From Pisaster brevispinus (taxonomy: Eukaryota; Echinodermata; Asteroidea; Forcipulatida; Asteriidae), in NCBI GenBank assembly GCA_023634235.1, contig JAMKCF010000008.1, forward strand, positions 2,671,001 through 2,735,000: a stretch of 64,000 bases of DNA. The letters run 5' to 3'. This document shows, piece by piece, positions 17,961 through 51,700 of the stretch. The notes under the pieces are model-generated. The model was not told the DNA's origin. It did no database searches and worked only from the letters and a program-made list of their open reading frames with translations. Made by a program: the position numbers and the translations under genes. Numbering within the stretch: position 1 is the first letter of the stretch; each line of letters starts with the position of its first letter.

Positions 17961-18177
17961 CACAGGCTCATGGAATACCGAAAATTCAGCCTCAATGTAT
18001 ATGATACGCAGAGGCGGTATGTTTTTCCGTATTCCACTCACGCTTGTGTGATAATTACTATTGTTTCCCTTTATAGCAGTCTGTGTTGAGTGGTTTAATA
18101 AATGCGCATATCATCCATGTCTTGGTCGCTAGGGCTCACATGACGGAGCAAGCTCGACTGCCTCCTTCTGTCTTGTC

Positions 18178-18208
18178 TCCTCCTCCTCCTCCTCCTCCTC
18201 CTCCTCCA
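18178..18208. repeat. (TCC)n microsatellite
   Basis: About ten TCC triplets; reads as poly-Pro in one frame but lies in no supported gene. Confidence 0.85.
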
Positions 18209-24694: not shown

Positions 24695-24754
24695 CTACAT
24701 GAGGGAGCAAACTTGTGACTTTTTTCCTGTTGCTTTTTCTTGGATTTGCCTCAT
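24695..24754 (-). CDS. KIF28: Kinesin exon 26, terminal exon with CaaX-type end
   Basis: A 60-nt terminal exon after a strong acceptor (TTTTTCTTCTTATCCAG), entered in phase 0. It encodes [19 protein letters not shown] and then TAG. The last four residues, CSLM, match a CaaX box (Cys, two mostly aliphatic residues, Met), with lysines just upstream. Evidence is the splice site, phase and an immediate stop; there is no homology I can confirm. If wrong, the true last exon lies elsewhere in 20000-27000. Confidence 0.62.
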   Translation of the reverse strand: MRQIQEKATGKKSQVCSLM

Positions 24755-27700
24755 CTGGATAAGAAGAAAAAGGGGAAGATTAAGAAGAATGACTTTTAGG
24801 GAGGCCGCAAAACAAAAACTCAAAATCTAAGAGCATAGAGGGTCAATTAAGGACACAACTACACCCCAAAAAAACCCTTTAATTTCCCCACCCCCAACAA
24901 CCATAAAAATATATTTTTGTATAAAAGTATTCAGCTTTTAAAGTCCAAACATCTTCCTTAAAGTTCAGCAAATAATAAAAAAAGGAACTTTTTGGGGGTC
25001 TTGTTTAAAATATCTCTGGTGGGAAGTGGAAGTTCTGATCTACAAGATCTTTGCAGAATTAATTTTGAAAATGTTTTTGAAATTCATATGATGGGTATCA
25101 GTTTTGTTCCTGGGGTTCCTTTGAAAAGTTGTTTTTCTTGGAAATCAGGCTACAAGACCTCCTCTGAGCAGCTCCAAGAAGTATAAAGAAAAGAATTTAG
25201 TCAACATTTGAAGGTGAAACTGGTGGCTCACAAATGAGAGTGGAGTTGCCTGTAAGAGAAGCAGATGGTTAATACATGCGGATGGTTTGACTTCTTCGTT
25301 CTGTTTCTTCTTTTGCCTTGCATTAGGCTAAACGGTCTATGAACAACAACAACAAAAGGCTTGTATCATCATCAATTGATTCGAGGATTGAAACACCCAC
25401 CCAAGGAATTTTAGCATTGGGCCGGTAACATCACAACCAAGCGTTAATGAATGTGTTTGGCACAAAAGTACCAGGGCTTGCTCATCTCGAGGTTGCTATA
25501 CAAAAGCTTGCCCCAAACCATGTGACATGGCAACTGTCTCTAGTGTCAGGAATTCAAATTTAAGAAGCCACTGAGACCAAGTCAGTGCACCAGAAATTAC
25601 AAAGTTAAGGAATCAGTTTTAAGTCTGGGTGTATAATTCTGGGCCAGTGAAAGTTCTGACCTACAAGACCAGTGGTCTAGTGGAGATGTTCTTGCAATTC
25701 TAGCACTGTGCTGGCTATATATTTCCTGTAAGAATTCTCCTTGACTATATGTGTGTATTACTTGTTTTATGGCAATTAGACTTCTTCGCATTCTGTCCTA
25801 GACGTAAAGCCAGAAAACAAAAGTACGGGAAAAAAATGAAGTGAACTGAGTTTTTGGTTGCAGTTTGAGAATAGCTAATAGGTATTAACAACATCAAGGT
25901 AAAACTGAAATATGAAGTTCTGAGAACCAATGAACGAGCTAAATAAGATTACTAAAAATAAGTAATAAAGTAAAAAGGTTGCGGGTTCGAATACAGCCGA
26001 GCCAACTGCTGATTTCACAATGACTAATATAAATATTGTCGTCTAGATACTGAAACACGATTTATCGATTTGTGCAATTAATATTCACATACATTAAACC
26101 ATTGTTTGTATGAGAGAGATTGGCTGTTGCCAGCTTGGTGTTTATCATCTCCTTGTGGGAGCTTTGCCGAGTAACCTTGTAGGAAAGATCATCTAAACAA
26201 ACCAAGAAGATGAGTTGTCAATATGTCATAGTGATTATGATTGATGCACAGCTTAAGATTGATCTTAGCTGTTTGTGAAATCTACCCTGGGCTGGGCACT
26301 TTTGAGGGTTACTCGGTTTTATTACCAGACAGATAAAGTAAGAAAAATTTTCATGCAAGAAAGAAAGTAGATGATTGTTAAAAACTGTGGAAATTTGTTA
26401 AGCTTTGTTTGAGTAATTTTTATCTGCAGGATAAATGTTTTAACATTACGTGCATTTTCTTAAAATGTTAACAGTTAATTTTGCAAGAGTGCAAGCTGTT
26501 AATTTGAACTTCACAGAAATTATCAGGCTGTTAATTTTGAATTGTTTACAACGAGATTGTGCAAATGTGAGAACGCTTCACAAAAACACCTGACAAATTG
26601 TTAATAAAACTAACTTTGTACCCTCCATGTTTATACAATGTAGTTGTAATTAACTTAAAAAAATTGTATTTTTGAATTTTTAGGGGGACAGTTTGGTATG
26701 GCTGGTTTGAGATTACAATAAACGCAAAAAAGCAGAGTGGATTTATCGGAAGAACTCTTTGACTAGCACCGGTTTCATGAATGTATTAAGTTACAAGGTT
26801 GAGTTTCATCCAAATGCCGCCTGTCGTACCAATGGTGTTACATAAAGCGATCTTGGAAATAACTGAAAGCTGATCATGCTCAGGCAGTAAAATGGTATAA
26901 AGAAACATACAAACATTCCCAGAGACAACAATATGGGAAGCTATGAGAGAAGGCTGAAGGGGGGAAGGACAGGGTAGAAGGATTTGAAGAACGCCTAGTA
27001 CACACACATTGCTGGGAAACAACAAAACAGTCATCGTTATATTAAAGCTTACGTTCTCGGCTGAAACGTTTACGCTTTCCTTGTTCCCCTCGCTAGGCGC
27101 CTCGCCCCCTTTCGACATGCCGTTTGTCTGGATTGGGGTTGCGGGCGGGGCCTGCTTTGGGCTGGGTATGGGCTCCTCATTGGGTGTGGCCGGTTTGGGG
27201 CTGGGTTTGGGTTCCTCAGGGGGCGGGGCCTGTTTTGAGCTTGGTTCAGGCTCCTCTTTGATTGGCTGCTGTTTTTCCGATGCCGGATCTTCAAGTTCAA
27301 AACTGAACACACTGACAGAGTCCTCCTGGTTTTGTAATAAAATTGTTTTAAATCAAGGATTGTGTCCAAGCAGTTAACAAATAATGATAAAAATTCAAAT
27401 ACATGCCAATCCTAATTCTCAATAGATTGGGTACTTCAAGCTGTACTACAGTAGGCCCCTCTCCCCAATGTTCATCGACAGACCATAACCAATCTATTAA
27501 ATTTCCTCCCCGTTCACAACTCATGAACATTCCTTGTGACTCCCTGTATTTGGCTTCAAGTTTTGAGAATGTTTCTCATAAAAATTAAAAAAAATTAACT
27601 TGCAGATTTAACTTCTGAAGGAACTAAACTTCAAGGCGTCTACTGTGTAGAGTTGAACACTCCTGGAGACAAATTTTGCCATTTTCTATTCTCACTTACT

Positions 27701-30700
27701 TTCAGCTATTCAATAAACGCTTGTTAATAATTATTACCTTGCCATTTTTAAAGTTATGTTGATTGAATTCAGAACTAGGCTGAAGGATTTAAGATTTCAT
27801 GGCCCAATTCAGGCTTTTAAAACTTTTTCTGGGGGTTTACTTTTCTGGTAAGAACTTATTAGTGGTTGTTCTCATGAGTGACTGGTGGATGAATACATGA
27901 CGGGTGAACAGAGAGGGAACTATATTTTTCACTCATGTCACAACTAAATGTTGTTCTAAGATGGCAAGTGCAGGTGAGTTAGGTCCTTACGTCTTGATCG
28001 CCATTTTGAATATCCTTTAGAGCTTTGTGTCCCTGTATAATCTGCTCACGGGGATTTAAGAGATAAATACTTGCCTTTTAAGGTCAGAGGTGAAAGTTCA
28101 AAGGAACAGAAGTTCAAGAGGTGAGAACATCTTTTAGACTCGATTCAGAAAGTGAGAATAGGAACAACGGGTGCAAATAGCTTTGGCTGATTTTAGGAAT
28201 TTTGACTGAATGTACAGTTCACTCAACGTATAGGAATTTCTACCACAATGTGGTTATGAAATTACATTTTTCAGAGCTTAATTTGGTCTTGGACTGGATA
28301 AACTTTTTATGATGGTTATAAAGGCCAGTTCAGTGTGAAGATTTGTTGGAGGAAAAGATAGTTCCACACATTAGTAATAAAGGTAAAAAAAAACCAACTC
28401 AAAACTGGTTAGAATCTGATACCGCTAGAATTTGACGTAAACAAAGAAAAAAGAAGAAGTGTTTTCTGGTAGAATGAAATTCAACTGCAATGTGTCACAC
28501 ACCACTCTAATAGTAAAACTAGCATCTACAGCTTTCATTTCAAAATGAACAACAAACCCCCCAAAAAGTGGGGGGGAATGGCAAGTTCTCATTTCTATCA
28601 ACTCAGTAATATTTCTTCTGACACTACAAAATTGACTCGCAAAGGTGAACTAAAAACTGAAACCCAAACTACGGAACTCTGTGAATGAAGCGAGAGCACA
28701 TTACCTCTCCAGGTTGCAACCACTAGGAGAATTAAAGAAGGAGAGGGAGGAGGGGAAGTACTTGCTCAATCAGATTCTTTGGTTTGGAGTGAAACCGACG
28801 AGAAAAAGGTTCTCAGAGGTCTACAATTTTCAAAGGCGGGAAAAGGGTGCGGGAAGTATGATTTGTTAGAGGCGTTTTAGGAGTAAGGCAGATGCAGAGA
28901 AGTTCTCATTGGGGGTGAGTTCTGGTTTTGAGTTCTGGGGGTGAGTTTCAAAGAGATATGCGACTGTAAAAAAAGTAACACAAAACCAAACAGTGGGTAC
29001 TGGGGTCCTCTTGGTCCGAGGATGAAGCCTCCACAATAACCTGGATGCTACCTTTGAGAGGTTTACAGACTCTCTCCACCACCACAGGTACTAATCCAGA
29101 GGTTTGGTCATGATTGACAAGGTCTGCCACTTTCTTGTCTAAAATGAAACTTCATCTCCGACAAGAAACTCTGGAGGATGACTGTTTTCAACGAAAAATA
29201 CCGAATTCAGGTAAAAATCGGGTCTGCTCAAAGGAAGTGGAAGCCTTTGGTGACAAACCTGTTGACATGTTATAGAGTGGACTTAAAAATCTGGAAACGT
29301 GTCATGCAAACACCACTTAAAGTATGGCATCATCAACTGCTGCACGATTTGAGGGAAAAGTGCAGTTGTTGCAAGGTGTATCAGTAAAATGCCACCTAAT
29401 TTTGACACCTTATGCCAAAATCAGGCAGTTCTTAGAAATAGTAAAATGATATTTAAAGTGAAGACAACTGAAACATCGATGATTTCAAAGTGATGTGATG
29501 TCTGAAACATTTTCTATATATTGAGAATTACTTAATCATTACAGACTGAATCAGACGTTTGAAAGCTCTGCGTCTCCACTCATCAATTTGATGAGCAAAT
29601 AAACCAAGTTTTTAGTTTCGGCCTGAGGAAGTGATTTGCTTTGAAATGCCATCACACCAGGCCGCATGTCGCTCTAGGAAAATTGACACCCATTGCTGTG
29701 TGTTTTGTTCTGGGCAACAACGACAACAAATCTCAGTGGATTAATTGCCACAAAATTTCATTGGGATTTTTAAAACACTGAGACCAGTACTCCCTGTTCA
29801 ATGCATATGACTTACTCCACAAAATGCTTGTCTAATTGGGTTTCGACTAAAGATAGAAATAAAAGACAGAATACTAAGAACTACAATTGAGAGGGGAGGA
29901 AGAAAGGAAGTTTTCTCAGCCCATTGAGGTCTTACTTTGTTCAGCATGTGCACTCGAGTCTTCAGCTTGGACCCCGTGCTGTACGCTACCGCCGAGACTG
30001 AACGATAGAACGGATCAAACTGCTGCTCTTCTCTGGGTTTATCCTCCCACTGTTTGCAAATCTCCTGCAGCGAACAAGAAATGCACCACAAAAACGTTAG
30101 TTTAGGATCAACTTGGGGTGAGCAAAGGTAATTTTATCATAATGAAATTTGAACCTGTGACCTCCAAATTTTCGTGACGACCAGAAACTCAAACGTACAG
30201 AACAGCGTTTCCTTCACTAAGCAGAAAGGCTAGTGACTGGTTTGCATATTGGTTTCAGCCACTTCAAGGACCAAAACTGCCCATGGCGAGCAGAGTTGCA
30301 AGTGTTAAGAGTCTTAAGTGAACCCTAGAGGGCGCACTCTACTTTAATCCGTCATATTGACTCTGATGTTAATCTACAAGGGGAACTATGGTCAACACTG
30401 ACCCCAACTCTGACTTCACACTGAAGCTGATGAGTATCTAGACTGATCCCACTATTGATAAAAACATAACCTGATTAGGATTAACTCTCGACTCTTATGT
30501 TGATCTGAACCTAAACTAGTATGGATCAACAATAGCCCTCATATCAAACCACACTGACTATAAGATGGATTAACATATGGGCCTAATATCAAACCACACT
30601 GAATCTAAGATGGATCAAAGATGGCTCTCATATCAAACCACACCCACCCATCTCTGGATCAACTCTAACCCTGATATGGATCAAGACTGACCTGTAATCG

Positions 30701-33700
30701 TCTCTCTTTCTTCTCCAATCTCTCATACTTCCTCTTGAGGAGCAGTAGTTCCCCTTTGATCTGTCCCACTTCATCCTGTCCATCACCCTCTGGGGCCATG
30801 GAGCCGATGCGAGCCTTCCTCCCAGAATCCTGCATGTTCTCCATCTGCCGCAGCTCCTACAAAGTACAAACAAACGGGGTATATTTCTCATTTAATGGAT
30901 GTAGAAAATTGCATCAGGGATAAAGAAAACCATCCCAAATTTATAACTCTTTACGTGACCTACGGGTAAAACAGAAATCCCATCGAATCCCTTCCAAGTA
31001 GTAGAAATCACTGAGTGTGCAGTGCTTAGTTAGCACACATCGGTGTATTGGGTTAGACCAAAATAATACGTCTGCGAAATGATCAAACTTTCTATCTTCG
31101 CTGTCTCAAAACATGAATTTCACAAGTGGTATTGTTTGTGAATCCCGAAGTGTGACGTTAAAGTGCACCTCGGGCATGGCTTGCGTGGGCTGTCTTATAC
31201 TGGTTTTTAGAGCCCCTCTGCTCACGGTTATCAGCTCTGCAACTATGCAGTAAAATAGGAACTGGTGTCTCCCAGGCTACTTCCGGCAAGAGACAACGGC
31301 TGACAATCCCAACATGAATCTTCTCTCTGCTGGTTGAGCTACAAAGAGCGGATGAGGGTGAAAACCCACAGGGCTGGAATTTCATCTTTGAGAGGGTAAA
31401 GGCTGCTCCATTTTTCAAGGGCCCTTCTATTGGATAAACTTAACGTCTCCGTTGGATCAACTTGACGTCTACGGGAAACATTTGAAGGGGCACGGAGACC
31501 AGAAACCAGGGCAATACAGAGGCCGTGGCCTCCCGTTAATTCCACGCCACAATCTAAGAGCAGCTTTGACCATAGATATTATTATCAGTAAAATACATAA
31601 TGATGGAAGACTGCACTATGCAAGTGCAAGTTGTAGTCCATCGACGGTGACGATGATGACCATTTCCTCAAGTCCATTTTCCCCCACCATGGGTTGGGTA
31701 TTTTCAGAAATTTAACCCAACTCACTGCATCTCTTTGTTGTTATTTTATCATCTGAGATACCGTTGCTGTCTCAGTAAATAACACCAACCTTTGTTGTGA
31801 GTTTAGAGAGCTTAGAGTCCGGGGCCGAGTCCACCTGTTTGCCGTAAACACTGAACTTGATGCTGGAGTTCTCAAAGTAGGCCAAGACCTCTTCAGTGAC
31901 ACTCGGGATGGAGACGATCCTGCTGTGGTTCCACTCCGGCGACAGCGTGTCCTTGATCTCGTTGGTCCAGGTGAACTCTTGCTCGTTGTAGCACTTGTAC
32001 TTCACTTTCAGCCCCTTGGAGAAACGGGACTTGTGGACCTCACCATTACGGATGGACACCTTCAAGAAAATTCCAAATTTTGTTTATTTTTAAATTTTTT
32101 TATGCTCATGACAGGAAGCATAATAAAGTCTTCTGTCAGCAGTATTTCCAGTGGTTGTAATTTTTCTTTAAGTACATGAAACCATCCAAAAGTGTTTCAA
32201 CATGTGAATGGACTTGCAGACTTATATTAAAAACAAATTGAGGTAATAATTTGTTAAAGGCAGGGTATACTTTTGGTAATTGTCAGAGACCAGTATCCTC
32301 ACCAACGTATGCATAAAATATCAAACCTGTGAAAATTTGGCCTCAATTGGTCATTGAAGTCACAAGAAAAAAATGAAAGAAAAAAACACCCTTGTTGCAT
32401 AGAATTGAGATGGCTTCAGGCATGAAGCCTTTCTCAGATTAAATTTCTTTTTGGTGAAAAATTACCTCTTTCTCTAAAAGTACAGGTCTTCAAAGGGTAT
32501 CGTTTCTAACAATGTTTTGTAATATCAACAGCTCTCCAGTGCTCTTTTTATGGTCCTTAATTTTGGAGTGATAGACAAACAGTTACACTGCATTTGTTCA
32601 GATCCAAGATAAATGTTTCAACTTATGTATAATGTTTAAAAGAAATGCATCTGTGCTGTCATCACATTATTTCAAATCGTAACAAAATGTAGGATCTATA
32701 CTAATACATGTGGAAACAAAGCGCACAAACAACTTTTAAAAAATAACTAGTGTTCTAAAATGGACCTCAAGTTTAAAGAATCTTAACAAAAACGATTCAA
32801 TTTGTTTTACTAAGTAACTTTTATATAAAAAAGTTGTGGATAACTAACTACTTTACAAAAAATAAATGGTGTTCTGCAATAACTGCAATAAGAATTTTAA
32901 CAAAAACAACAATTCAATCTGTTTGAATAAGTCAATAGAATATTTCAAAAACGCAAAAAAAAGTGTCCCCAAAAATGTTATTCAACACAAACTATCAAGT
33001 AGTAAACCACGAGGGAACCTGACTGGGTAAATTTTAAATAATTTGGGGTTTGCACAAAGAAAAATCGACTGGAGCTCCAGTCTATTTTTCTTTGTTCAAA
33101 CCAACAAATTGCTCAACACAAACTGATAGAAATTTCTTTGATATTTCCTTCCTTGTTGTTAGTGCTTTGAGGTTTATGTATGGCGCTATATACAAAGCTC
33201 TATTTTTTATTATTATTTAGAAAACATTCTGATTGAAAGGAAACATAATCCTGGGTTATATAACTTACCTTGAAGTGGTAGGGTTTACCCAGGAGCTCGT
33301 TCGGTTCGTCCACAAAGTCGTCTTCTTCTATTGGTTTACCCTTCTGGTCACATGGATCAATGCACACAATGAGAGACCCCTCCTCTTTACCCTGTGACAA
33401 GAAAAAAACAAATCACTTTATGAGGACGGATTTTGTCCAGTTTTTGTTACAAAACAGTGATGTTATTGAAGGGTAAACAATCAACCAAATCATGAGAAGT
33501 GATTAGCTGTCTGTTTATCTTGGTCAAGAGATTAAACCTCTTGAACTTTTAGGATGATACAGTAATGAATTTACAGACTGTCTACATCACTACAAATGAA
33601 AACTTAGATGTTTGACTAATCTTTGGGAGAGTTTTAAGAATTGCTCCGAGGTCAATTTCAGTTTTGTGATGCCCTCGTTTTCCAATCAATGAGAGTCCTT

Positions 33701-36700
33701 ATGCGAAGGGGAAAGAAGTCACAAATGGTACTCTAACAACAGATGGCGGCAGTGTGGTTTGTAATTTCACCTTGAAGTCGGTAACAGTGATCTTCCCATC
33801 AAAGTCCAGGTTGAAGCCCAGACTCTGGAGGAAGGCGTTTGCAGTGCCGATTAAGACGTCCTCGGCTGGCTCCCAAAAGGGATCCTCCTCCTTTGGGATG
33901 GTCATAATTCCCTCGTCACCATCAATGTATCTTTGGTACAGATCCTAAGGATAAATTTGATATTAATAGTATATTGTCACATCATACAAACACCTCAGAT
34001 CTTGAGTTATGTAATAATGTCGTTTGTCATACAAGAGAGCCAGAATGGATCTCAGTGCCTCAAATTTTGTGTGTACATCCGGGAAATTTTAAGCAGGATA
34101 TTTCATTTTTGCATCGACAGGAAACAAAATGAATATTTCGAAAGCACTGGTATCCGCCTTGGTCATTTGACCAGTTAGTTCCTCCCGTAAACCATCTCAG
34201 CTCCCTGGGGAGTACACAGCCTGAGCTGTATGTAGCGCACCGAGCTAAATCAATCACAAGAACCATCTCTGCCCTCAAAGGTATGCTTTTCCTCTCAGGT
34301 GAGAAGCATTTTATCCTTAAGTAGCTTGCTTGATGACAAAAGTGTCTTGATTGGGATTCGAACCATTACCCCGAACTAACACTGCAATAGACCGCTCGGC
34401 CATGACAAGCCACATATTATTATTATCATCATGTTATTTCTGGTAGTGAAACCCATGATGCCTCATAAGTGAACTGCAGGGTGATAAAGAAGAGCTGAAC
34501 TATTACAGAGGTCATTCCATTTTCTAAGTTGTTCCCGGTGAGACAATATCATAAAACCTGAACAGTCAGAATTACTGGGACAGAGTGACAAACATAACAT
34601 TACTTCCAAACTAAACAACGTACCTGGATGACGTAGCGACGATTGATAAACTTCCCTCTCTCCCACAGCCAACTATTACGATTCAGAAGGTCCTTCATCT
34701 TTACCATAACTCTGGAAAAAGCAAGAAGAACAAAACAAACCCGGTTATTCTAACAATCCATTATGATTATCAGTATAAACTAAAGAGCTGTGTAAATTAA
34801 AGAGGTGTAAAACTTGCATTGGGGATAAAGAATATTAGTTGTATTTTGGGGCAAGACGTCTGCTCTAGAATGGGTTTGAATCCCAACCGAATAACATGAA
34901 TGTTTACATTTTTGTCTTCAAAGAATTCAGGAAAAGTACTGAGTATACAGTGCTTTACACACATTGGTGTAAAACACAAATAAAACACTTCTGCAAACAA
35001 ATGTCGTTATTTCTATTATTCTGATTTATTTATTATAAAAGGCAGGGTGTACTTCTGGTAAATTACTCCACAGGGTAATGACCATAAAAACTTACTTGGT
35101 AAAGAGTACTGGAGAGCTGTAGATATTATAAAACATTGTGAGAAACGACCCCCTTTAAAGTAAAGTAGTCTTGGAGAAAGAGGTATATTTTCACCCCAAA
35201 CTTTGAATCTGAGAAAGGCTTCAGGCATGAAGCCTTTCTCAGGCATGTAAGCACACAATTCTATGTAACAAGGGTGTTTCTTCTTTCATTACTTTCTTGC
35301 AACTTCGATGCCCAGTTGAGCCCAAATTTTCACAGGTTTGTTATTTTCTGCATTTGTTTGGATACACCAAGTGAGGATACTGGTCTTTCACAATTACCAA
35401 AAGTATATCCTACCTTTAAAGTAAAAATTGAAACATGTGGACAGAAGGCCAAAATAGTTTCAATGTACAACTACAATTTAATATAAAGATACCCTATAAT
35501 CGGCTAAAAGGTGTAAACAAAAATTGTCAATTACAAGTTTTTGACTCCACAAAGTTACGGATTGTGTTTATTCACAAAGTAAAAGGAAAACCACACAGAT
35601 TCGAGGGCTGGTTGTGTGAAAGTGATCATTATATTTTACTTTTAAAACATCATTCTAACCATATTAATTTCACAACAAATGCTTTTTAGCCCAAAGCAAC
35701 CAATCCACAGGCAATGTGTCCCTTTACTGTCATGACTTGGTGATATTGAAAAAAAAGATGTGACTACTCTCATAAGAAACTGTTTCTCTAAAAGTTGGCA
35801 AAGAAGATGATTCATTGAATGAAGCAAAAGTCGAATTTTCGAAATCAAATTTTGAGGACAACTTGTTTTTTGTTGGATAAATAGAAAGAAGGGAAAGCAA
35901 AAGAAAGGCAACAACTCGAGAACTACGGAAGTTCAGGGTGAACAAAGATGAGGAAAGAAGTTTTGGGGATCTTTGGGAACATCTCAAAGTCATACTTTGT
36001 CTCTCTGTTATTGCCTTCCTGCGCCTCTTCACTGAGCAGCACAATCTCAAAGCCCTTGTGCTTGTCCAACTCTTCACTGACTGCGTTCACCTCGTTCACC
36101 ATGGGCAGCAATTCCAAGATCTGATCCTGTGCCCTCTGTTGATCTGCAGCAATTAAGCAATGAAGGTTTGCAATGACAATATTAATATAACTAATGATAT
36201 TAATTTATATACAGAAATCCTGTCTCACAAGCCAGCAGGTGCCCCACCATATACCACTCCAATGCCCACCCATTGTCTAGGACTTTCAGAATTTGTGTGT
36301 GTTTTTTTTCACGACCTATGGACCAACCCCATCGACCACGTCACAATGACCCTTCCTCCGTGCACTGACCATGTCAGCGACCAGTCCTTGCTCTATCCAG
36401 TGACCAAATAACCAATATATAAATGTCTTATTTCCACTCCCATTCTCTATCCATTCTTGCCTTTCAAACACTTCGCTTCTACTTGATGATAAGTTGTACT
36501 CTTTGTACAGCCCTACAGTTGTGAGAATAAAGCTACAGTCCCTTAGTCCAAAGAGAGCAATCAGTATTATTTTTTTATCTTCATCGTCTAGCTCTATGTG
36601 ACACCATCATTCTTCAAGTGTTACACTAAGAAGTGAACTCCCACCTTTTGTCAGATTCCCGCCTGCCGTCAATCCTCTAGCCTCGGCCAACTCCTTCTGT

Positions 36701-39700
36701 GCGAAATCCCACTCGATATTGTTGGGCGTCCCCTCGGGTGCCTTGGGATTGAGCGGGTTGTGGAAGACAAACATGTGGTTGGAGCCGAACATGACGCGGT
36801 CCAGATGTTCCAAATTGCGAGCTCCGGTCAGGGGAAGACCGTTGACTTTGATCTTGCAGCTCGAGCTGTAAGGCTTGAGGGTGATCTCACCGTTAGCATT
36901 GGTGATGATGGCGTGCTTTTTGGAGATGCTAAACAAAAGAGATAATGACTTGATCAGCACAGATTTTAAAAAACCCACAAAAATACCCAATTATCCTAAA
37001 AATGTTACCCTCTTCTCGTTGGCCCTCACATCAAAATTTGTTCCATCTACAGCATCACCAACGGCTTCTTTTCTTGTGATGCTATTTTTTCCCCAAACTT
37101 TATTGGTTGAATTTGTGATTTTGTTTCTCTGAGATACAGTGGCTGCAATGGAAACCTTTGGAACAAGTGACAACAGGTCCGCCAAACGGGTCAAAGCTTT
37201 ACGTTCTCGTTCAATACCTGAGGCCACTCAGCATAACGGTTGGCTGAGGGTCGGCATCTTTGCGTCCGATTGTCGTCTCACTGGCCGCCAAGAAGTGAAA
37301 GACCACATTGCTCAGCATGACGTCCTCGTTCAAGTTGGCAAAAAAAGGCTCTTTGTTCTTGCGGGATTGCATAACGGCTTTGTCAGTCAAGCCGCCTGGG
37401 TCATCCTCTTTTTGTTGGGCATGCTGAGGTCCAAGAGAAATACAGGGAAGGCAAAAAGTCAGAATAATAATAATAATAATAATATATTGTATTTGTATAG
37501 CGCCTACTGCAGGCCAGCCTCTAAGCGCTTAACATTCAGTATTTCCTGCAAGGTATTTGGGGCTACGTTTGAAGTATGAGACCTACTCCTTTACATAGCA
37601 CCTTGTTATGGTTTACAAGGTGCTGTGGCGCAATATGCAGCCGATCAAACCAGGAACACCGTGGCGGACCCCTTCTCTTTTCGATAAGTGCACTGGGTTC
37701 TTTTTCGTGCGTTACACAACACACGGGACCAACGGCTTTACGTCCCATCCGAAGGACGAAGCAATCATGGTTAAGTGTCTTGCTTAAGGACACAGGTGTC
37801 ACGACCGGGGCTCGAACCCACACTCTGCTGATCAGAAACACCAGAGCTTGAGTCCAGTGATCTTATCCACTCGGCCACGACACGCCAGAATATGTAAGAA
37901 GGGTTCGACCTTCCTTTCTTTAAAGCTTGTAAGAATCTGTTGGCTTGTAATTTAACTTCTTTTAGTCTGACAGCCTTTAAAAAACTACAAACATTTATTA
38001 GGTGCTTTTAACCGATATTTGCCTTACAGTGGGATTTCCTATAGATCAGACAAACAACGTTAGCGCCTAAGGAAAAACTAAAGGAAAACCTGCAGATAAA
38101 CAAGAGGTTATCGTCTGTTTTTGTACTCAATCTACTGGAGATGTGAGATGGGAAACATAGTAAAATATTTATCACATTAAAGAGAATGAGGTGCTCTTCC
38201 CAACAGTATAACGTGTGTTGGGATAAGTTTACTTGCAAGGCAGTAAATAATGAATGTTTATTGTAATGCAGCAGCAAGCGCAACAAGGGCTTAAGGTAGG
38301 AACAGTGTTTATGGACTGTGACCAGTCAGGCAGGTACATTATGGGTTTAACATTGTATCAAAGCGCCTTCCACTATTACTACTCTTGCCGGCAGCCAAAT
38401 GGACGTACAGATTTAAAATCGTTCACATCAATAATCTCTATCCTTGACAGTCACGTTTACAATGAATGGCTTCTGACTGACACCCCAAACAAAATGTTGA
38501 CAAAGTGTGGAGACTGTAAACATTTAGGGCAAGACAGCTCAGTTGGTAGAGCACCAGAGGTTCCAATCACGTTCTCATCAATTTGTATTTGTTCACCCAA
38601 AATTCATTTACAAAACTTCATCTCTATGCGAGCAAAGAGATTGTAGTTTCATTCATTTGTTTCTTCAAAGCGTACCAAAATCAGTTGTCTTTCTGTTGTG
38701 TTCCTGGGGTTCCGGGGTTGAAAGGATGGGCAAGGAGGAGCTTTTTGGGTGTCTTACCTTTTTGTCCCAGTCAAAGTCCTCCATGGCTTCTTGGTTGGCC
38801 AGCAGCTGGGCTTTTATCTCCTCCATCATTTCCTTCCTCATTTTCTCTTTCTCTGTGGAAGTTAACAAATGCAATATAATCAGACTGTATCATCTACACT
38901 GGCTGATGATTGAAACCTGTCTCCAAAGTGTTCAACATCTTGCTGAAAAAGTGAAACAACCAACCAAGTTTCCGTGAACTAAAAGAAGCAAAGAAAAACC
39001 CACCTTCTGGGCTCATGTTTACACCGCCTTGGTCCGCCGTCGGGAGTGTCCCTCCAGACATTGCAGTCTTGAGTCTGTCATTCTCCTCCCGGAGCTCTCT
39101 GATCAGCTTCTCCACCGGGTTCTCGTTGACCACGGCCTTGTTCTTGATCTTCTTGGCACGGTCGGCGTAGCGTAAGGTGCCCAGCGTCTCGTCATGGTTG
39201 ATGTCGGCCGGAGAGAGGGCGGCGATCATGATAGTTTTGCTGGGGTAAGGTGTAAATAAGGATGAAATAAAATCACACAAAAATCACATCTGAAAACTAC
39301 TTTTCTGCAATAACCTTTTATATTAATTTCATCTTGTACAAGAAGGGGCCTTTTTCAAGAAACACACTGTTTGAGATCATGCACAACACATACAAGAAAA
39401 ACATTACACAGAGTGCTTGGTAAACATCAGAAACCTATTTGTCCATTTGGTACCGTTTGTCATACTGCCTATATCCAACCTGGTATTAATATTTTGCTTG
39501 ACCTACAGTGAGCACCTTTCACCCTCCATGAGTTTCTCGAGACATTCCTTGGAAATTTGATTTGACCTTTTCACACTTAAACTTTTCAAACTCACTTGCT
39601 AAACCTTTGCAAACATTGCAGTGGGAAATAGCTACCCCAACTTTGTAGTAGGGTTCAGCCAGATAACCCAGAGGTTAGCATGATCTTCAGCGTGCATTTT

Positions 39701-42700
39701 TTGGAGGAAAGTCACATCAAGTGTGGAACGAACATGGGGTGCTGGTGGGGTTAAAGATCCGCAGGAATTTCATGGGGTTTCATCTCCTGGGAAATGGCTT
39801 GTTAGTGTGGAAAAGGCTAAAAGAGGGCCTACGCAGCCAACATGGATGAAGATCAAGCATAGCATTTTCCTGGCTGTAACTTAATGGCCAACAAATTCCT
39901 GTGAAAATATTTGTTTGCTTCAAAATGAGAAATATTTATTACCTGTTACCACCAAGGGCATTTTGCAGTAGTTTTGTGAGCACCGAGTCACGGTACGGAA
40001 CAAGCACCTTCTTCTTACCCATGGAGAGATCTGCAAGAGCCTGTAAGTTTAAAGGAAGTAATTCAACCAAGTGCTAGAGTTTCAAGAATATTTTTACTAC
40101 ATGTAGGTCTTAAAGCTCAGAACTTTCAAGTTCCGTCAAGCGTATTTCACAAGTCAGCAGGGAGTTTTTCCTTGTGTGCGTGCGTACTCCACGCTACCGC
40201 GCATTCTTCACTTACACAGCTAGCGAAGAATTTTTGCACTTGCCCTGTATTAAGTGAAGAATGGTGATCGCAAGTGCAGACCTTGGTGGTAAGCAGAGCC
40301 ATGAAATTGGGCCCTCCTTTATTTCTTCCGCAGCTTGGAAATGTTTCCATGCAAATTGACAAACTGTAAACAGGGTTCGTACACTTATAATAGCTATAAA
40401 TTCAAGGACTTTCAAGGTCCAGAAATCCCATTATCAAGGACCAAAATCCAGCAAATATTGATGGTTTATTTGAGACTTGTATATAAAACGCTTGGTGTTG
40501 GGTGATTTGATTCTGTACAATTAGTTAAAGTTTGAAGGTTGGCTGGTCACATAAACTTAAACTTGATGAAAAAACACATTACTCTGTATGATTAAATACT
40601 TTAATTACAAAAAGTGAATTTTCAAGGACTTACAAGGACCTAAGATAAATCCAAGGACTTTCAAGGCCTTGAAAAACAGATTTTCAAATTCCAGGACTTT
40701 CAAGGATTTTCAAGGACCGTACGAACCCTGTGTAAAGCATCGACTTATTTGAATTTTATTTTTGCTTTAAGTCACTTTGTACACAGTCATCTCCATTTTC
40801 ATCTTAAGAAGGCTAAACTTGCTAACACTTCTTGTAGTTGGAAAGACTCCCAACCTTTGAGCAAATTAATCTTGAACAAATATGTGGGAAGGGAGTGGAA
40901 GGTCGAAATATCAAAACAGTTGTGTTTTCTTTTGATCACTGCTTGTGTAAGAACTTACAGAGATCACGTTTCCGAGCGAAGACAAGGACTTGTTGATGTT
41001 AGCTCCTTCCTTTAGTCTGTCACCAGTGGCTCCAGTACTGTCTGCACGTTCACTACCTAAATGAGGTCACAAGAAAACAAACTTGATGAGCAAAATAAAT
41101 CCAAAGTTTTAGTTCAGCGACTTGATAACACGGGATTATTAACTGAGCCCAATTTCATGGCTCTGCTTACCGTGAGCAAAGAATCTTTGCTTACGTCAGA
41201 GGGGAATTCTTTGCTTACGTCAAGCGTTTTTCACGGGTTAGCAGGGAATTTTTGCTTGCAGCTAGCGCAGAATTTTGGCGCTTGCACGTTAAACGGAGAA
41301 TGGTGGTCACAAGCGCAGAATTCAGCGGTAAGCAGAGCCACGAAAATGGGCCCTGGTCTCCTTAGTTAACTTTATCTTATGAAAGTGACCCCCATCACTA
41401 AGGTTCACAGCTTGAGTTTCAGTTTTCATTAGATGACCACCAGGTACCTCAGAAATTCCACCGAGCAATAAACTTTTTTTTTGACCAAATAATTTCTTTC
41501 TCTTTAACTATGTAACTTCAGGGTGAACAAACAAAATTGACAAGAGCGGGATTTGAACCTGTGATCTCCAGTTTAATGTGTCGGTGCTCTACAAACTGAA
41601 CTAACTAGTTCTAATGTTGGTAGTCTCCCTATTTTGCCGATATGGCCGTGTCCGAAACGGCGACTTCGGCTACAGCTACGGCTAGATCGCACGCGTCTGC
41701 CTATTCTTTAACACTGGCAGACGCGCTGATCTAGCTGTAGCTGTAGCCGAAGTCTCCGTTTCGGACACGGCCTATCTTTGTTCGGGGGTGCAAGTCAGAA
41801 GCCATGCACTGTAACTGCCGTATAGGCAGGGATTACACCCAAGTTTACAATACAACCTGGGAAGCGGCAGTACAGGGATCACTATAAGTGGATATGACTT
41901 TTTAAATCAAATATCAAGCAATAAATCACAAGGCAAACTGACTGGGTAAATTTAAAATAAATTTGGGGGTGAACAAAGCAAAAAATTACTGAAACTGGAT
42001 TTGAACCTGCAACCGCCAGATTACTGTGCCGTTGAGATATCTTTAAATAGTTGCTGAGTTTTAAGGCAACGCTAAAGTAATCAAATCAAAAAATGTGTTT
42101 GTGAAAAAAAAAAACGCTAAAATTGTTCTGTTGTGATGTTACCGTTTCAATGCTAAAATGACTAGACTCTGTGATCAGTTCGTACTTTAAAACCTGGATT
42201 TAGTTTTTACCTGCGAGATCGACTAGGTTGATAACACTGGTCTTCTTGGTCTCTAGTCCTGCGTCGTTCTTGCTGATTTGGTCAAACTGAATGGTGACGA
42301 CTGTATGAGCTCGGCTGCTGGTTGCGTTCATCTGCGTGGCTGCCACGGTTCTATTGGATGTTCCTATCAACAGAATGCCAAGAGCTCAAAATGATGATGA
42401 CGAAGTTTAAAATATCAAGTAATAAACCACAATGGAAACTGACTTGGGCAATTTTAAAACCTTTTAAATTTTAACTAATTTTGGGTTGAACAAAGAAACA
42501 TTATTATTACCCCCTTTGACCTTCTTATTACTCCTCATTTCACCTTCTTATTACTCCTCATTTCACCTTCTTTTTACTCCTCATTTCACCTTCTTATTAC
42601 TCCTCATTTCACCTTCTTATTACTCCCCCATTTCACCTTCTTATTACCCCCCATTTCACCTTCTTATTACTCCTCATTTCACCTTCTTATTACTCCTCAT

Positions 42701-45700
42701 TTCACCTTCTTATTACTCCTCATTTCACCTTCTTATTACCCCTCATTTCACCTTCTTATTACCCCCCATTTCACCTTCTTATTACTCCCCCATTTCACCT
42801 TCTTATTACTTCCCATTTCACCTTCTTATTACTCTCCCATTTCACCTTCTTATTACTCCTCATTTCACCTTCTTATTACTCCTCATTTCACCTTCTTATT
42901 ACTCCTCATTTCACCTTCTTATTACTCCTCATTTCACCTTCTTATTACTCCTCATTTCACCTTCTTATTACTCCTCATTTCACCTTCTTATTACTCCTCA
43001 TTTCACCTTCTTATTACCCCCCATTTCACCTTCTTATTACTCCCCAATTTCACCTTCTTATTACTCCTCATTTCACCTTCTTATTACCCCCCATTTCACC
43101 TTCTTATTTCTCCCCCATTTCACCTTCTTATTACTCCCCCATTTCACCTTCTTATTACTCCTCATTTCACCTTCTTATTACCCCCCATTTCACCTTCTTA
43201 TTTCTACCCCATTTCACCTTCTTATTACTCCCCCATTTCACCTTCTTATTACTCCTCATTTCACCTTCTTATTACTCCTCATTTCACCTTCTTTTTACTC
43301 CTCATTTCACCTTCTTATTACTCCTCATTTCACCTTCTTATTACTCCTCATTTCACCTTCTTATTACTCCCCCATTTCACCTTCTTATTACTCATTTCAC
43401 CTTCTTATTACCCCCATTTCACCTTCTTATTTCTCCCCCATTTCACCTTCTTATTACTCCCCCATTTCACCTTCTTATTACCCCCCATTTCACCTTCTTA
43501 TTACTTCCCATTTCACCTTCTTATTACTCCTCATTTCACCTTCTTATTACTCCTCATTTCACCTTCTTATTACTCCTCATTTCACCTTCTTATTACTCCT
43601 CATTTCACCTTCTTATTACTCCTCATTTCACCTTCTTATTACTCCTCATTTCACCTTCTTATTACCCCCCATTTCACCTTCTTATTACTCCCCAATTTCA
43701 CCTTCTTATTACTCCTCATTTCACCTTCTTATTACCCCCCATTTCACCTTCTTATTTCTCCCCCATTTCACCTTCTTATTACTCCTCATTTCACCTTCTT
43801 ATTTCTACCCCATTTCATCTTCTTATTACTCCTCATTTCACCTTCTTATTACTCCCCATTTCACCTTCTTATTACTCCTCATTTCACCTTCTTATTACCC
43901 CCCATTTCACCTTCTTATTTCTACCCCATTTCATCTTCTTATTACTCCTCATTTCACCTTCTTATTACTCCTCATTTCACCTTCTTTTTACTCCTCATTT
44001 CACCTTCTTATTACTCCCCATTTCACCTTCTAATTACTCCCCCATTTCATCTTCTTATTACTCCCCATTTCACCTTCTTATTACTCCCCCATTTCACCTT
44101 CTTATTACCCCCCATTTCACCTTCTTAATACTCTGTCCAATCCCTTTCCAACCTCCAGGTACCCACATACACCCTCTTGTGCCTCCACCACCCATTCCCT
44201 TACAGGATCCCCTGACTTGGCATCAGTACTCACCCTCTTCAATTCTGCTCTCAATTTCTCTGTAGCTGCCCACAGCGACCTTCTTCAGTGCCTGGACATA
44301 GAACAGACCCTCCTTAGGATTCTGTCGGACTGCTAGCCCTCCCTTTGGGTTGACCTTCTGCAGCAGGTCACGGACCTGCTCATTGTAAATCTCAAGCATG
44401 GAGAAGGTGACCTCGTATTTCTAAGAAAAAAGAAATATGAAAAGTATGTTAGGTTAAGTTATGGTTTGCCCATGGCAAAACAGATGTTTCAAGAGAGGAG
44501 TGGGCAGTCTTTAAGATTTAAGTTCATTTAAGTTAAGTACAAGATACTGTAATAAAGAGGAGCAATCCAATGTACCAGGGATTGCCAGGTCAAATCATCC
44601 AATCTAATAAAATGGCAAAAACCTTGGAACATTTTTGCCAGCGATCTAACTAGCTCGTGGAAATCGAATTTCACTGGAGGTTGAACTCAGCTCTTCAATT
44701 TTTTTCAATATTATTTTTACTCATCGCATTATTCTTCCAATTGGAGAATTAATAAAGCTTGCTTTGACAATGAAAGGACAAATATATCAGTCACGATATT
44801 TTGAACTGCAAAAATGATGAAATAAGGCAAAAATTCTTCCATTCCTCCAATAAAAATTGGTCTAAATGTGAAAAAGTGCTCTGAAATGGAACTTTGTTTC
44901 ACTTACCACAGCACCATCACTCTTTTCTATCGTCTGGAAGAGGACATCACAGGTAATGGGAACAATACCCCTTTGAAAGAAAATAAATCATTACAGAAAT
45001 GGTACTTAAATGATAATTAATTTTGGAATGTAATTACGTAAAGAGTTTGGCATAAGACTCCTAGCCTGTCCAATATGGATAATTGTATACAACCGCACAC
45101 ATAGATCCTGATCATTTGATTGGTGGAACACGCATCACGTGTCATACTTTATTTTGCCAATTTTAATATAGCAGTCCAACATTAATAAATATCGGACACT
45201 TGAAACGCTTCGCAGCTGATCTTCGTGAGTACTAATAAATTTTTAATTGAGCGCCAAACTGCGTATGGTTTATGAACGCCAAACATGCTTTACCGGTCTT
45301 AAACAGCTCCAGCTATGTCTTTATCATCCATTCAATACCTCATTGATGAAACAAATTATTTATTTCTTGTTGAATATAGGATGCAATTTATTCATACAAT
45401 ATACAGAATAAAAATCCCTTGTTGAAATCTGGACTGTTCCATTTCACTCAGCTTCGCCTCATGAAATGGAACACTCCAGATTTCACCTCATGATTATATT
45501 CTGCTATATTGTACTCTTATGCATCCAATATTTGTATATTATTGGACACTTCACAGTGTCGTTCCAAAAATAATCTTTCCCGGCCATTTGTCAACAAGAG
45601 GCCAGGTCCTGTTAGGGCAGTCAGGGGTGGTGTCTATTTGGAGTCGTCCACGTTGTCTAGAAGGGTTTTTAGATTGTTCACTGTATGGGGTGAATGAGAT

Positions 45701-48700: not shown

Positions 48701-51700
48701 TCATGATCCATTTTTTCAGACCTCAAATAATTGAAGTTAATACTTGTTAATGCTTTTTAAGGTCTTAAATTTGGATAGTTCAATTGACCATATTTTTGAC
48801 CGCATGAGGGCGCTTTCATCAGGGAATGTCTTGCATCACAATAGCAGTTTTAGCTTCTTATAATTGCCTGTTTGTAGTTTTCTTGCACCAATGAAGAGAT
48901 ACATAAAAATAGCGATACAAAAGGGAAAAAACCCTGTTTGTTTACTTGTTTTTCATCATGTGAAATTTATCCACATACGCCCTCACGTGGTCAAAAATAC
49001 GGCGAATTCAAGACTTTTTAATACTTTAAAAGGATCCACAGAAACCCTGGAAAAATTGGTACTTCACAGAGGCTTACACAAACTGACGTTCATCCTATGA
49101 CATATTCCAAGACAAGCATCATTAGGCTATCCCTAAAAAAGGAACCAATAACGATGCCTGGAGATTCATGTTCAAGAGGGCCACTTTCATTTTGCAAAGA
49201 GGCACTTCCACTGAAGACTCTTTTAAAGTCTATGGGAAACTTTTTGAATGGGAACGAAGGCCTAGAGACCTGTGCAACCTGGCCTCTGTGTAATTCCAGG
49301 CCTGCAACTTTATGTATTGAACTGTTTACGTCACCCTGTGAACACAACAATCCCCTATTCTTGGCAACCAGGAATTACAGACCACTGAACCATAACTGAT
49401 CAATTAAGACATGCAAGTCAAAGCTCTTCATACTCTGCATGTGTGTACTGTAGATCAAGTTATGAATAAGAATTCACATGAACGAAAAAAAGTAATATAT
49501 GTACTGGTAAAAGAGACAGGAATTTGTCACAGACGTGCTTGTTGTTTCGCAACGACTGTACTTTGACCTCTCCAAGATGGTAACTGTCCAGGTGACTACA
49601 TAACTTCCACGAATATTTTGTTTGCAAATAGATTAAATCAATTGTTCGGAACTTTGAGCCATCCCACAATGACCCTGTGCTCCAAAGAGTAGACTGCATT
49701 AATTTGACATTTGCCAGCTAGTTTTATTCAGATATCACGTCAACAATCATTGCTGCTAATCAGCTTGCCAGGTTTAAGTTGTTCCGTATTGCCTCATTAA
49801 ATGCCTATCCAAACATTTCAGTGGAAAATTTACCTCACTGCTACACAATCACAGGGTCCTTTTGAGGGACTTTAAAGGGACTTTCCCCTCAGCAATCACA
49901 AATGTTGCCAGGGATATGTCAAAAACAAACACAGGGAGCAACAATAATCTTTAGTGCAGATTCGCTCATGAGTAAAGTTGTGGTTGAAGAGTTTGTGGAC
50001 CAGTGGAACAGACTTGAATCCAATTGCAGGGTTTGATCTGAACTCAGACCTTTTGATGTCTGGCTCGTGAAAAAAAGGTAGCTGATTTTTTTTTTTTTAA
50101 TACAAAGAAATCCTGCTCCTTGATCTATAGGGATAAGGATACTGTACCCTGAAAGATTCTTGCATTCTGTAACTCCACGGGTTATCTACAATCGGAAATG
50201 TCATCGTTTCATGCCAAAACTTTGGATCCTAACCCGTACCAAAATGTCCAATTCATTCCAATTGGATATCCAGTTGGAAAGAATTGGATTGAAATGGTAC
50301 TGAGTTGCTGTGTGAGTTGGTTTTATATTGGAATATTGAGTTTCCAATTGGAATAAAATCTCAGACCAACTCAGTCCAATTGGAAATCCAATTGGAGTCA
50401 GTTGGCGTGATTAATAGTTGAATTGGAATTAGTTGGCATTTGTTTCTACCAATTGGAAACTTCAACTCCTAATATATTTCCAATTGAAAATTTGACTTCT
50501 CAACAGGGTCTAATTGAAAAAGAAAATGTCATATTACTCAAATTACAGTGTGCCAACTGGATTTAGAATTAATTAATTGCACTTTCAGTAAATCCCTCGA
50601 GTGGGGTGGGATGTACTACATCCCCATAAGTTTGTTTGGACTGTCAGCCCAATGGGTATAAACTACTTTTTTTGCTCAATGGTCCAATGATCGGTATCAA
50701 GACTATTGAGCTGTCAAACTTTATGAGTAAAAACATATTTTTGGGGAATGAACTGAGTCCAATTGTGTCCAATTGGGTCCAATTGGTTTGTGCCAAGAAC
50801 ACAAAAATTTCCAATTGGTTCCAATTGGAAATTTGATGGGAAATTTTAGTAAGGGCTAGTTTCAGAATTTTCTGTCAGCAATGACTCTCAACCCTGCAAA
50901 TAGGTTAAAGCCTGATGCTCCACAAAGGCATAGGATGTAATTGCTTCCATACCCCTGGCCATTGCCTCCATGCTCCTAATCATTGCCTCCATGCCCCTGG
51001 CCATTGCCTCCATGCCCCTGATCATTGCCTCCATGCCCCTGGCCATTGCCTCCATGCTCCTAATCATTGCCTCCATGCCCCTGGTCATTGCCTCCATGCT
51101 CCTAATCATTGCCTCCATGCCCCTGGCCATTGCCTCCATGCCCCTGATCATTGCCTCCATGTCCCTGATCATTGCCTCCATGCCCCGAATTATTGCCTCA
51201 ATGTCACTGGCCATTGCCTCAATGCCCCGAATAATTGCCTCCATGCTCCTAATCATTGCCTCCATGCCCGAATCATTGCCTCCATGCCCCCGGTGATTGC
51301 CCCGGTGCACTTTAAATTGCCTCAATATGGAATTTAAAATTGTCCTCAGTCATAAGGTTGCCCTTGACCACAGAACGGAGCATAAGGCCACAAACCCAAC
51401 TCAAATAGCATATTTGTAAGCAGAACTATAGGAGATCCTGCAGGATAAAAACAAGCCCAAACCTAACCTCAAGGTTTGAAATTTACCTCTGACACTTCAC
51501 AGAGGCAATAGAGGCAGTTACCTCCTCCCTCCCCCCCCATCACTGCCCTGGTGCCCCTTGAATAAAATGTTACAGAAGAAACTTAAATTTCCCTCATACT
51601 GTAGGGGTGCCCTTGCCTATATTCAGGAAGAACTGCCCTGCCCTTTAGGGAGGAATGCAAAATTAAACAGGTGGTAACTCACAGTTAGTCTCATGGTTTT

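What the first reader, a model, noticed from the sequence alone, without database searches (positions are those of the whole stretch)
24695..24754. A kinesin-3 that may end in a CaaX prenylation motif
The proposed last exon ends ...KKSQVCSLM followed at once by TAG. Cys-Ser-Leu-Met fits the CaaX consensus, and Met at the last position favours farnesylation; lysines just upstream resemble the polybasic region of prenylated small GTPases. KIF1-type kinesin-3 motors bind vesicles through a C-terminal PH domain, and none is visible here. A lipid anchor would be a different way to hold membrane cargo. The exon has a strong acceptor and the right phase, but I cannot confirm it by homology.
Basis: partly seen in the sequence, partly recalled or inferred. 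Interest (0 to 1): 0.78.

Follow-up and report, generated by a model that had tools for sequence, protein, structure and literature searches.

The report
Conserved lipid-anchor signal on KIF28 kinesin
A sea-star motor protein of the KIF28 family carries, on each of two candidate last exons, a signal for adding a fatty anchor, and most of its relatives found here share that signal, though none of the roundworm relatives examined does.

Summary
The minus-strand exon 24754-24695 has a clean acceptor, the right phase, and encodes [23 protein letters not shown]. It is probably not the only last exon: one at 18249-18136 ends SRACSVM-stop and matches the end of Asterias rubens KIF28P X2 at 92%. The reported exon resembles the end of a sea-urchin isoform (SGVCAVM; best of 7058 stop-ended peptides). 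I read them as alternative last exons, each with a CaaX box.

The box is a family trait. Of 156 retrieved rows not named as nematodes, 142 have Cys at -4; all 142 also have Ser at -7 and aliphatic a2, and 130 end in Gln or Met. In the window only these two exons fit S..C.[ILVM][MQLSIT]-stop. Two further KIF28 paralogues in this genome end SAACSLQ and, by a fitting exon, SGVCVVM. None of 39 nematode rows has it.

Ser at -3 to the cysteine is half of a published PDE6-delta/Arl3 ciliary sorting signal. I propose a farnesylated kinesin-3, perhaps sorted by that route. Lipidation, RNA use and sorting are inferred; vertebrates were not seen. My library searches found no report of it.

The parts
24695..24754 (-). 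Reported last exon (type B): [23 protein letters not shown]; Ser -7, Val -5, CaaX box CSLM
   Evidence: resembles the end of S. purpuratus P0006
18136..18249 (-). Distal last exon (type A): KMVKEGNGKVVQANG...GGSRACSVM-stop; Ser -7, Ala -5, CaaX box CSVM
   Evidence: 92% to the end of A. rubens KIF28P X2; CAG acceptor, phase 0
27053..27325 (-). Cassette exon [14 protein letters not shown]...VSAEN, phase 0 at both ends
   Evidence: counterparts in P0004, P0005 and P0006
27991..28041 (-). Cassette exon [17 protein letters not shown], phase 0 at both ends
   Evidence: used in A. rubens X2
29936..30067 (-). Last constant exon, ends KTRVHMLNK|gtaaga
31790..32059 (-). Exon in the region after the KIF1B/MBS match ([10 protein letters not shown]...KLTTK)
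   Evidence: 95.6% to A. rubens
36646..36930 (-). FHA-region exon ([11 protein letters not shown]...)
   Evidence: FHA match placed on A. rubens P0001
39005..59941 (-). Motor-domain exons ([10 protein letters not shown]... at 59941 to ...[11 protein letters not shown]...MSPE ending 39005); the start-codon exon was not located

Best explanation
The gene at about 59941-18136 (minus) encodes KIF28, a kinesin-3 without a PH domain. Its end is probably built by alternative splicing: phase-0 cassette exons, then one of two last exons, 24754-24695 or 18249-18136. Each ends S-x-x-C-a-a-M. Farnesyltransferase would lipidate the cysteine; the last three residues would be removed and the cysteine methylated, leaving a farnesyl anchor on a flexible linker. 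Shown: the exons, their phases, the conservation of the end, predicted disorder of the A. rubens tail. Inferred: splicing choice, lipidation, membrane binding. A further inferred step, which I put at about 45%: the serine at -3 to the cysteine, with a small or hydrophobic residue at -1, lets PDE6-delta bind the farnesyl tail and Arl3 release it at the cilium, so the motor is loaded onto ciliary membrane. The two last exons differ at -1 (Val in type B, Ala in type A) and could tune that affinity. The trait is probably ancestral to the KIF28 clade and lost in nematodes, whose KLP-6 tends to have a Lys/Arg-rich tail. The confidence given is for the CaaX/farnesyl claim with both last exons, not for the ciliary step.
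For: Exon, phase, likeness to a sea-urchin isoform. Distal exon. Conservation: Cys at -4 in 112 of the 120 rows listed and 30 of the 36 new rows not named as nematodes, 142 of 156; 0 of 39 nematode rows. Ser at -7 in 142 of 142; a2 Ile/Leu/Val/Met in 142 of 142; X = Gln 93, Met 37, Leu 4, Ser 3, Ile 2, Thr 2, Val 1. a1 varies (1.65 bits) while Ser and Cys are fixed and positions upstream of -8 hold 1.2 bits or less: the pattern a prenyltransferase reads. 14 of 15 'lgn' rows, each an unbroken frame of 987-1057 codons on contigs of about 3-5 kb and so transcript-like, carry it. Tree built without the tail: 74 of 98 rows have it, 7 changes against a shuffled mean of 21.7, the 17 nematode rows form one clade. 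Other paralogues of this genome end SAACSLQ and, by a fitting exon, SGVCVVM. No PH domain by Pfam in six relatives; A. rubens tail 978-1018 has pLDDT under 50. PDE6D exons in the genome keep Glu88 and Trp90. Ser(-3) with a hydrophobic -1 gives low-nanomolar PDE6-delta binding and Arl3-only release (PMC5512577, abstract and passages). KLP-6 moves in cilia (PMC12646758, passages).
Against: No lipidation, membrane or RNA data for any member. 14 of 156 rows not named as nematodes lack the cysteine: some are marked partial or end in unrelated sequence, but real isoforms without it are possible; one of them, P0049, is a transcript-like lgn row. The type-B exon has one annotated counterpart (P0006), and a search with the tail alone found no protein at E up to 10. 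The residue at -1 is Ala in 120 of 142, unlike the Ile or Met of known high-affinity PDE6-delta cargo; I saw no published affinity for Ser(-3)/Ala(-1). Nematode KLP-6 reaches cilia while its relatives' tails lack a CaaX box, so the lipid is not needed there. HRAS also has Ser at -3 (PMC8842248, passage). FTase genes could not be searched. Other kinesin-3 families were not examined as a control, and how often other CaaX proteins have Ser at -3 was not measured.
Confidence: 0.82

Rival explanations
1. KIF28 is prenylated through the distal exon, but the reported exon 24754-24695 is a cryptic or relic exon that is seldom or never used.
For: The annotated A. rubens X2 ends on the distal exon; no protein was found by the tail of the reported exon; only one annotated counterpart, P0006.
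Confidence: 0.13
2. The KIF28 end is prenylated for general membrane holding; the fixed serine serves something else, such as phosphorylation or enzyme recognition, and PDE6-delta/Arl3 sorting plays no special part. This shares the farnesyl step with the best explanation and is a rival only to its ciliary step.
For: -1 is Ala in 120 of 142, unlike INPP5E (Ile) and GRK1 (Met); HRAS has Ser at -3.
Against: KLP-6 is a ciliary motor, and the serine is as fixed as the cysteine. The reported exon and the C6 paralogue have Val at -1.
Confidence: 0.5
3. The conserved end is another C-terminal motif, such as a PDZ ligand, not a prenylation site.
For: PDZ ligands are also read from the free C-terminus, with an aliphatic last residue (recalled).
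Against: A class-I PDZ ligand needs Ser/Thr third from the end; only 27 of 73 thinned rows have it (S17, T10). Cys at -4 is fixed and X is mostly Gln or Met.
Confidence: 0.05

Closest known systems
C. elegans KLP-6 (KIF28 clade, kinesin-3)
   Same: Best sequence and fold match in the PDB of the A. rubens protein (7wrg: E 3.6e-217; rank 1); no PH domain found in the C. brenneri orthologue by Pfam.
   Different: None of 39 nematode rows has Cys at -4, some of them fragments. The C. elegans C-terminus itself was not read; C. brenneri and C. nigoni were. Word searches for CaaX and prenyl in two KLP-6 papers gave none.
Trypanosoma brucei KinesinCaaX (CVIM)
   Same: A kinesin shown to be farnesylated at a C-terminal CaaX box that is needed for its localisation (PMC3206815, abstract).
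   Different: Its authors report orthologues only in kinetoplastids.
CENP-E (kinesin-7)
   Same: Farnesylated kinesin of animals (PMC10630089, listing and start of abstract; passage in PMC8950801).
   Different: Mitotic kinetochore motor of another kinesin family.
INPP5E and GRK1, farnesylated PDE6-delta cargo
   Same: Ser at -3 to the farnesyl cysteine (PMC5512577, passages).
   Different: -1 is Ile or Met there; mostly Ala in KIF28, Val in the reported exon. They are enzymes, not motors.
KIF1A/UNC-104 kinesin-3
   Same: Kinesin-3 motor, FHA and KIF1B-type region (motor match to KIF1A).
   Different: Binds vesicle lipid through a C-terminal PH domain (recalled); none found in six KIF28 proteins.

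Membership tests
KIF28 / KLP-6 subfamily of kinesin-3 | Kinesin-3 motor followed by FHA and KIF1B/MBS region | tested here: met
   Window exons match A. rubens KIF28P in order, residues 8 to 1018, with small gaps; Pfam Kinesin, FHA and KIF1B in P0001. On the window's own joined model, which lacks junction residues, Pfam gave Kinesin, Microtub_bd and a below-cut-off Kinesin_assoc only.
KIF28 / KLP-6 subfamily of kinesin-3 | Groups with KIF28 proteins in a tree | tested here: met
   With Asterias 99, with four sea-star rows 100, with ten echinoderm-side rows 98 (FastTree, unrooted, no outgroup)
KIF28 / KLP-6 subfamily of kinesin-3 | No C-terminal PH domain | tested here: met
   No PH family in six relatives; none among the precomputed domains listed
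CaaX-box (prenylated) proteins | C-a-a-X at the extreme C-terminus with aliphatic a2 and an X read by FTase or GGTase-I | tested here: met
   CSLM and CSVM here; 142 of 156 rows not named as nematodes have Cys at -4, all 142 with aliphatic a2. FTase preference for Met/Gln/Ser and GGTase-I for Leu is recalled.
CaaX-box (prenylated) proteins | Prenyl group on the cysteine | not testable with these tools
   needs labelling or mass spectrometry
CaaX-box (prenylated) proteins | FTase present in the genome | not tested
   PF00432 search did not complete:
High-affinity PDE6-delta / Arl3 ciliary cargo | Ser at -3 to the prenyl cysteine | tested here: met
   both exons; 142 of 142 relatives with Cys at -4
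High-affinity PDE6-delta / Arl3 ciliary cargo | Ile- or Met-like hydrophobic residue at -1 | tested here: inconclusive
   Val in the reported exon; Ala in the distal exon and in 120 of 142 relatives
High-affinity PDE6-delta / Arl3 ciliary cargo | PDE6-delta with the contact residues in the same genome | tested here: met
   Two PDE6D exons on C2; Glu88 and Trp90 kept by alignment to 150-residue PDB chains
High-affinity PDE6-delta / Arl3 ciliary cargo | Nanomolar binding and ciliary location | not testable with these tools
   needs peptide binding and imaging

The most novel reading that the evidence does not exclude
KIF28 is an ancient class of farnesylated kinesin, older than animals, whose S-x-x-C-a-a-[M/Q] end is a ciliary import and membrane-loading signal read by PDE6-delta and Arl3. 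Echinoderms add a splice switch between two last exons (Val or Ala at -1) that sets how much motor goes to the cilium. Nematodes, where this motor has been studied, replaced the lipid with a basic tail.
Probability: 0.35. Interest if true: 0.88.

Novelty: new variant of a known kind. Interest (0 to 1): 0.72.

Why it matters
In the papers I saw, this branch of kinesin-3 is known almost only through C. elegans KLP-6, and none of the nematode relatives read here has this tail. A lipid-anchor signal kept from an ichthyosporean and cnidarians to sea stars would explain how a kinesin-3 without a PH domain holds membrane. It also gives a cheap and specific test (two peptides, two point mutations) of whether a motor enters the cilium by the route used for farnesylated cargo such as INPP5E.

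Tried and rejected
Read-through of the EDSV exon past 27053 as the end of the protein: the frame runs on for about 90 residues to a stop with nothing like it among the C-termini; judged by eye.

A homology search with the last 110 residues of the model (EDSV exon plus reported exon) gave no protein at E up to 10. The database is clustered at 90% and shows one isoform per cluster, so the other members of the A. rubens cluster (9 in all) could not be read.

Vertebrates: no vertebrate name among the 120 listed of 162 or the 97; 42 rows were never seen, and the search needs shared exact words. So vertebrates are untested. Other kinesin-3 families were not examined as a control.

Polybasic region as a family trait: rejected; no Lys/Arg position is conserved upstream.

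Tree: FastTree only, unrooted, 27 of 95 inner forks open, with long branches (Daphnia, Anoplocephala, Heterodera, lgn190). Gain and loss are read from the distribution, not from a root. Only 98 of the 195 proteins plus the window were chosen for it, by hand, one or a few per species. The 7 rows without Cys at -4 outside nematodes (Clavelina, Ciona, Dreissena, lgn49, Babylonia, Actinostola, Anoplocephala) were kept in the count. The name of row P0161 rests on the gene-id prefix Nk52, which PMC6981761 uses for Chromosphaera perkinsii (passages); the taxonomy tool did not know that name.

AlphaFold model of A. rubens KIF28: pTM 0.42, TM-score to 7wrg only 0.36-0.44; used for tail disorder and to name the nearest fold, nothing more.

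C6 paralogue: its last exon was chosen by pattern and position; the join to the exon before it was not checked.

Full report
What was reported.

Check of the observation. The exon is there as described, with a pyrimidine-rich acceptor and a phase-0 join to the donor at 27053. The window lies in a 550-Mb assembly. The nearest protein found is Asterias rubens KIF28P isoform X2 (P0001), 96% identical over 77% of the searched part, so the animal is very probably a sea star. tblastn of P0001 places exons in order from 59941 to 18139, minus strand, covering residues 8 to 1018 with small gaps. The start-codon exon was not located.

A second last exon. The C-terminus of A. rubens X2 does not match 24754-24695. 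It matches 18249-18139 (KMVKEGNGKVVQANG...GGSRACSVM, 92%), followed by TGA. The window therefore holds two candidate last exons, both ending C-S-[L/V]-M. Between the last constant exon (ending 29936) and these lie two cassette exons, 28041-27991 and 27325-27053; these junctions are all phase 0, so any combination keeps the frame. Annotated relatives show such combinations: A. rubens X2 uses the 17-residue cassette and the distal exon; Holothuria (P0004) and Diadema (P0005) have an EDSV/EDTV-type stretch and a distal-type end (GGSKACIVQ, GGSKACIVM); S. purpuratus X3 (P0006) has an EDTV-type stretch and ends MNRVHEAATGKKPQSGVCAVM.

The reported exon resembles that sea-urchin end. Against all stop-ended peptides of the window (7058 stops) it scores 53 and the next 32; without the last four residues 42 and 32. 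I take it as a conserved alternative last exon (type B) beside the distal type A. RNA proof is missing, and a search with the tail alone found no protein.

The CaaX box is a family trait. Two protein searches gave 195 proteins: 120 listed of 162, and 75 new ones among the 97. Cys at -4 is found in 112 of the first 120 and in 30 of the 36 new rows not named as nematodes, 142 of 156. In all 142 the residue at -7 is serine and a2 is Ile, Leu, Val or Met; X is Gln 93, Met 37, Leu 4, Ser 3, Ile 2, Thr 2, Val 1. In 73 rows thinned by species, information is 4.32 bits at Ser and at Cys, 3.07 at -5, 2.28 at -6, 2.69 at a2, 2.64 at X, 1.65 at a1, 1.82 at -8, and 1.2 or less further upstream. That is what a prenyltransferase site on a loose linker looks like. 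In the window only the two last exons of this gene fit S..C.[ILVM][MQLSIT]-stop. Of 15 'lgn' rows, unbroken frames of 987-1057 codons on contigs of about 3-5 kb and so transcript-like, 14 have the box; the exception is P0049.

Distribution. In a FastTree of 98 rows built without the tail, 74 have Cys at -4. The 24 without are one clade of 17 nematodes (support 100) and 7 scattered tips; 7 changes against a shuffled mean of 21.7, none of 500 shuffles as low. The trait occurs in the window's branch (cnidarians, Trichoplax, molluscs, annelids, brachiopod, nemerteans, hemichordates, echinoderms, lancelets, tunicates); in KLP-6-like rows of molluscs, echinoderms and corals (for example Acanthaster CNVQ, oysters CSIQ, Oculina CSIQ); and in a further branch that holds Saccoglossus P0163 (CTIM) and Biomphalaria, Lymnaea and two unnamed rows ending in Leu or Ile, which by recalled rules suits GGTase-I. 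Daphnia (CTIS, long branch) lies there too. It is also in Nk52_evm17s539 (CNIQ), whose prefix belongs to the ichthyosporean Chromosphaera perkinsii and which sits beside the window's branch (98). The simplest reading is presence before animals and loss in nematodes, but the tree is unrooted. None of 39 nematode rows has the box, though several of those are fragments and C. elegans itself was not among the rows. In 17 thinned nematode rows the last 60 residues hold 9 to 23 Lys/Arg (mean 17.3), against 4 to 14 (mean 9.5) in the 142 Cys-4 rows. Vertebrates were not seen.

Same genome. The assembly has two further KIF28 genes. One, on C2 (22103874 to 22087554, minus), ends VTSAACSLQ-stop. One, on C6 (from 9274258, plus; best matched by Saccoglossus P0163), has a fitting last exon ...EETQKSGVCVVM-stop after an AG acceptor, about 680 bases past the last matched exon; its join was not checked. 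Of the four last exons in this genome all have Ser at -3 to Cys; -1 is Val (reported exon), Ala (distal), Ala (C2) and Val (C6).

How it probably works. Pfam finds no PH domain in six relatives, and the model of the A. rubens protein is of very low confidence over 978-1018, which suggests a flexible tail. A farnesyl group there would hold membrane in place of a PH domain. Fansa et al. (PMC5512577; abstract and passages) showed that Ser at -3 and Ile at -1 give INPP5E about a hundredfold higher PDE6-delta affinity than Rheb and restrict release to Arl3, which sorts it to cilia; GRK1 has Met and Ser at these places. KIF28 has the Ser in every row with the cysteine; -1 is Ala in 120 of 142 and Val in the reported exon. 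The sea star has PDE6-delta with Glu88 and Trp90. KLP-6 moves in C. elegans cilia and is needed for polycystin localisation (PMC12646758, passages). Together this suggests PDE6-delta/Arl3 handling of the motor, with the two last exons as a possible affinity switch. That last part is a hypothesis: Ala at -1, the CaaX-less nematode tails and Ser(-3) in HRAS (PMC8842248, passage) speak against a simple version of it.

What is known. Farnesylated kinesins exist in other families: T. brucei KinesinCaaX (abstract) and CENP-E (listing and start of abstract). A KIF21B variant ending CFLT is a predicted target (PMC3188499, passage). For KIF28 or KLP-6 I found no mention of prenylation. Searches: KIF28: 29 papers, 20 listed; 46, 20 listed; KIF28P with prenylation: 0; 1; KLP-6 with prenyl: 2, of which PMC7043889 was read in passages and concerns Rab28; the other was not read; 4, two read in passages; 4; and word searches inside PMC9314371 and PMC10945585. 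The library holds open-licence papers only, so a report elsewhere is possible.

Verdict. The exon passes the sequence tests made here; the CaaX reading is right; its scope is wider than proposed. It is a new variant of a known kind: a kinesin-3 clade with a conserved prenylation signal.

Noticed in passing
P0121-P0154, P0156, P0174, P0181, P0185, P0186 (nematode KLP-6 rows): None of these 39 rows has Cys at -4; the 17 thinned rows have more Lys/Arg in the last 60 residues (mean 17.3) than the Cys-4 rows (mean 9.5).
   Followed up: partly
P0180, P0182, P0183, P0184, P0187, P0179: These KIF28-like rows end C-x-x-Leu/Ile/Val, which by recalled rules suits geranylgeranylation rather than farnesylation.
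   Followed up: no
42504-44133: About 70 copies of a 23-base unit inside an intron give overlapping long open frames that look meaningless.
   Followed up: partly
50940-51301: Tandem array of a 21/42-base unit with open frames of MEAMIRG-type repeats.
   Followed up: partly
27143-27260: A 39-base tandem repeat, three copies, lies inside the coding cassette exon (13-residue Pro/Glu/Lys-rich unit).
   Followed up: no
18177-18207: A ten-unit CTC run inside the distal last exon encodes its poly-Gly stretch; its length may vary between animals.
   Followed up: no
24918-25048: Interspersed repeat just upstream of the reported exon; seven further partial copies at 71-81% were listed in the genome.
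   Followed up: no
G000:C3:723020-737566 (L009, L012-L014): UNC119-like gene, found with the same Pfam family as PDE6-delta; the name is by recalled resemblance.
   Followed up: no
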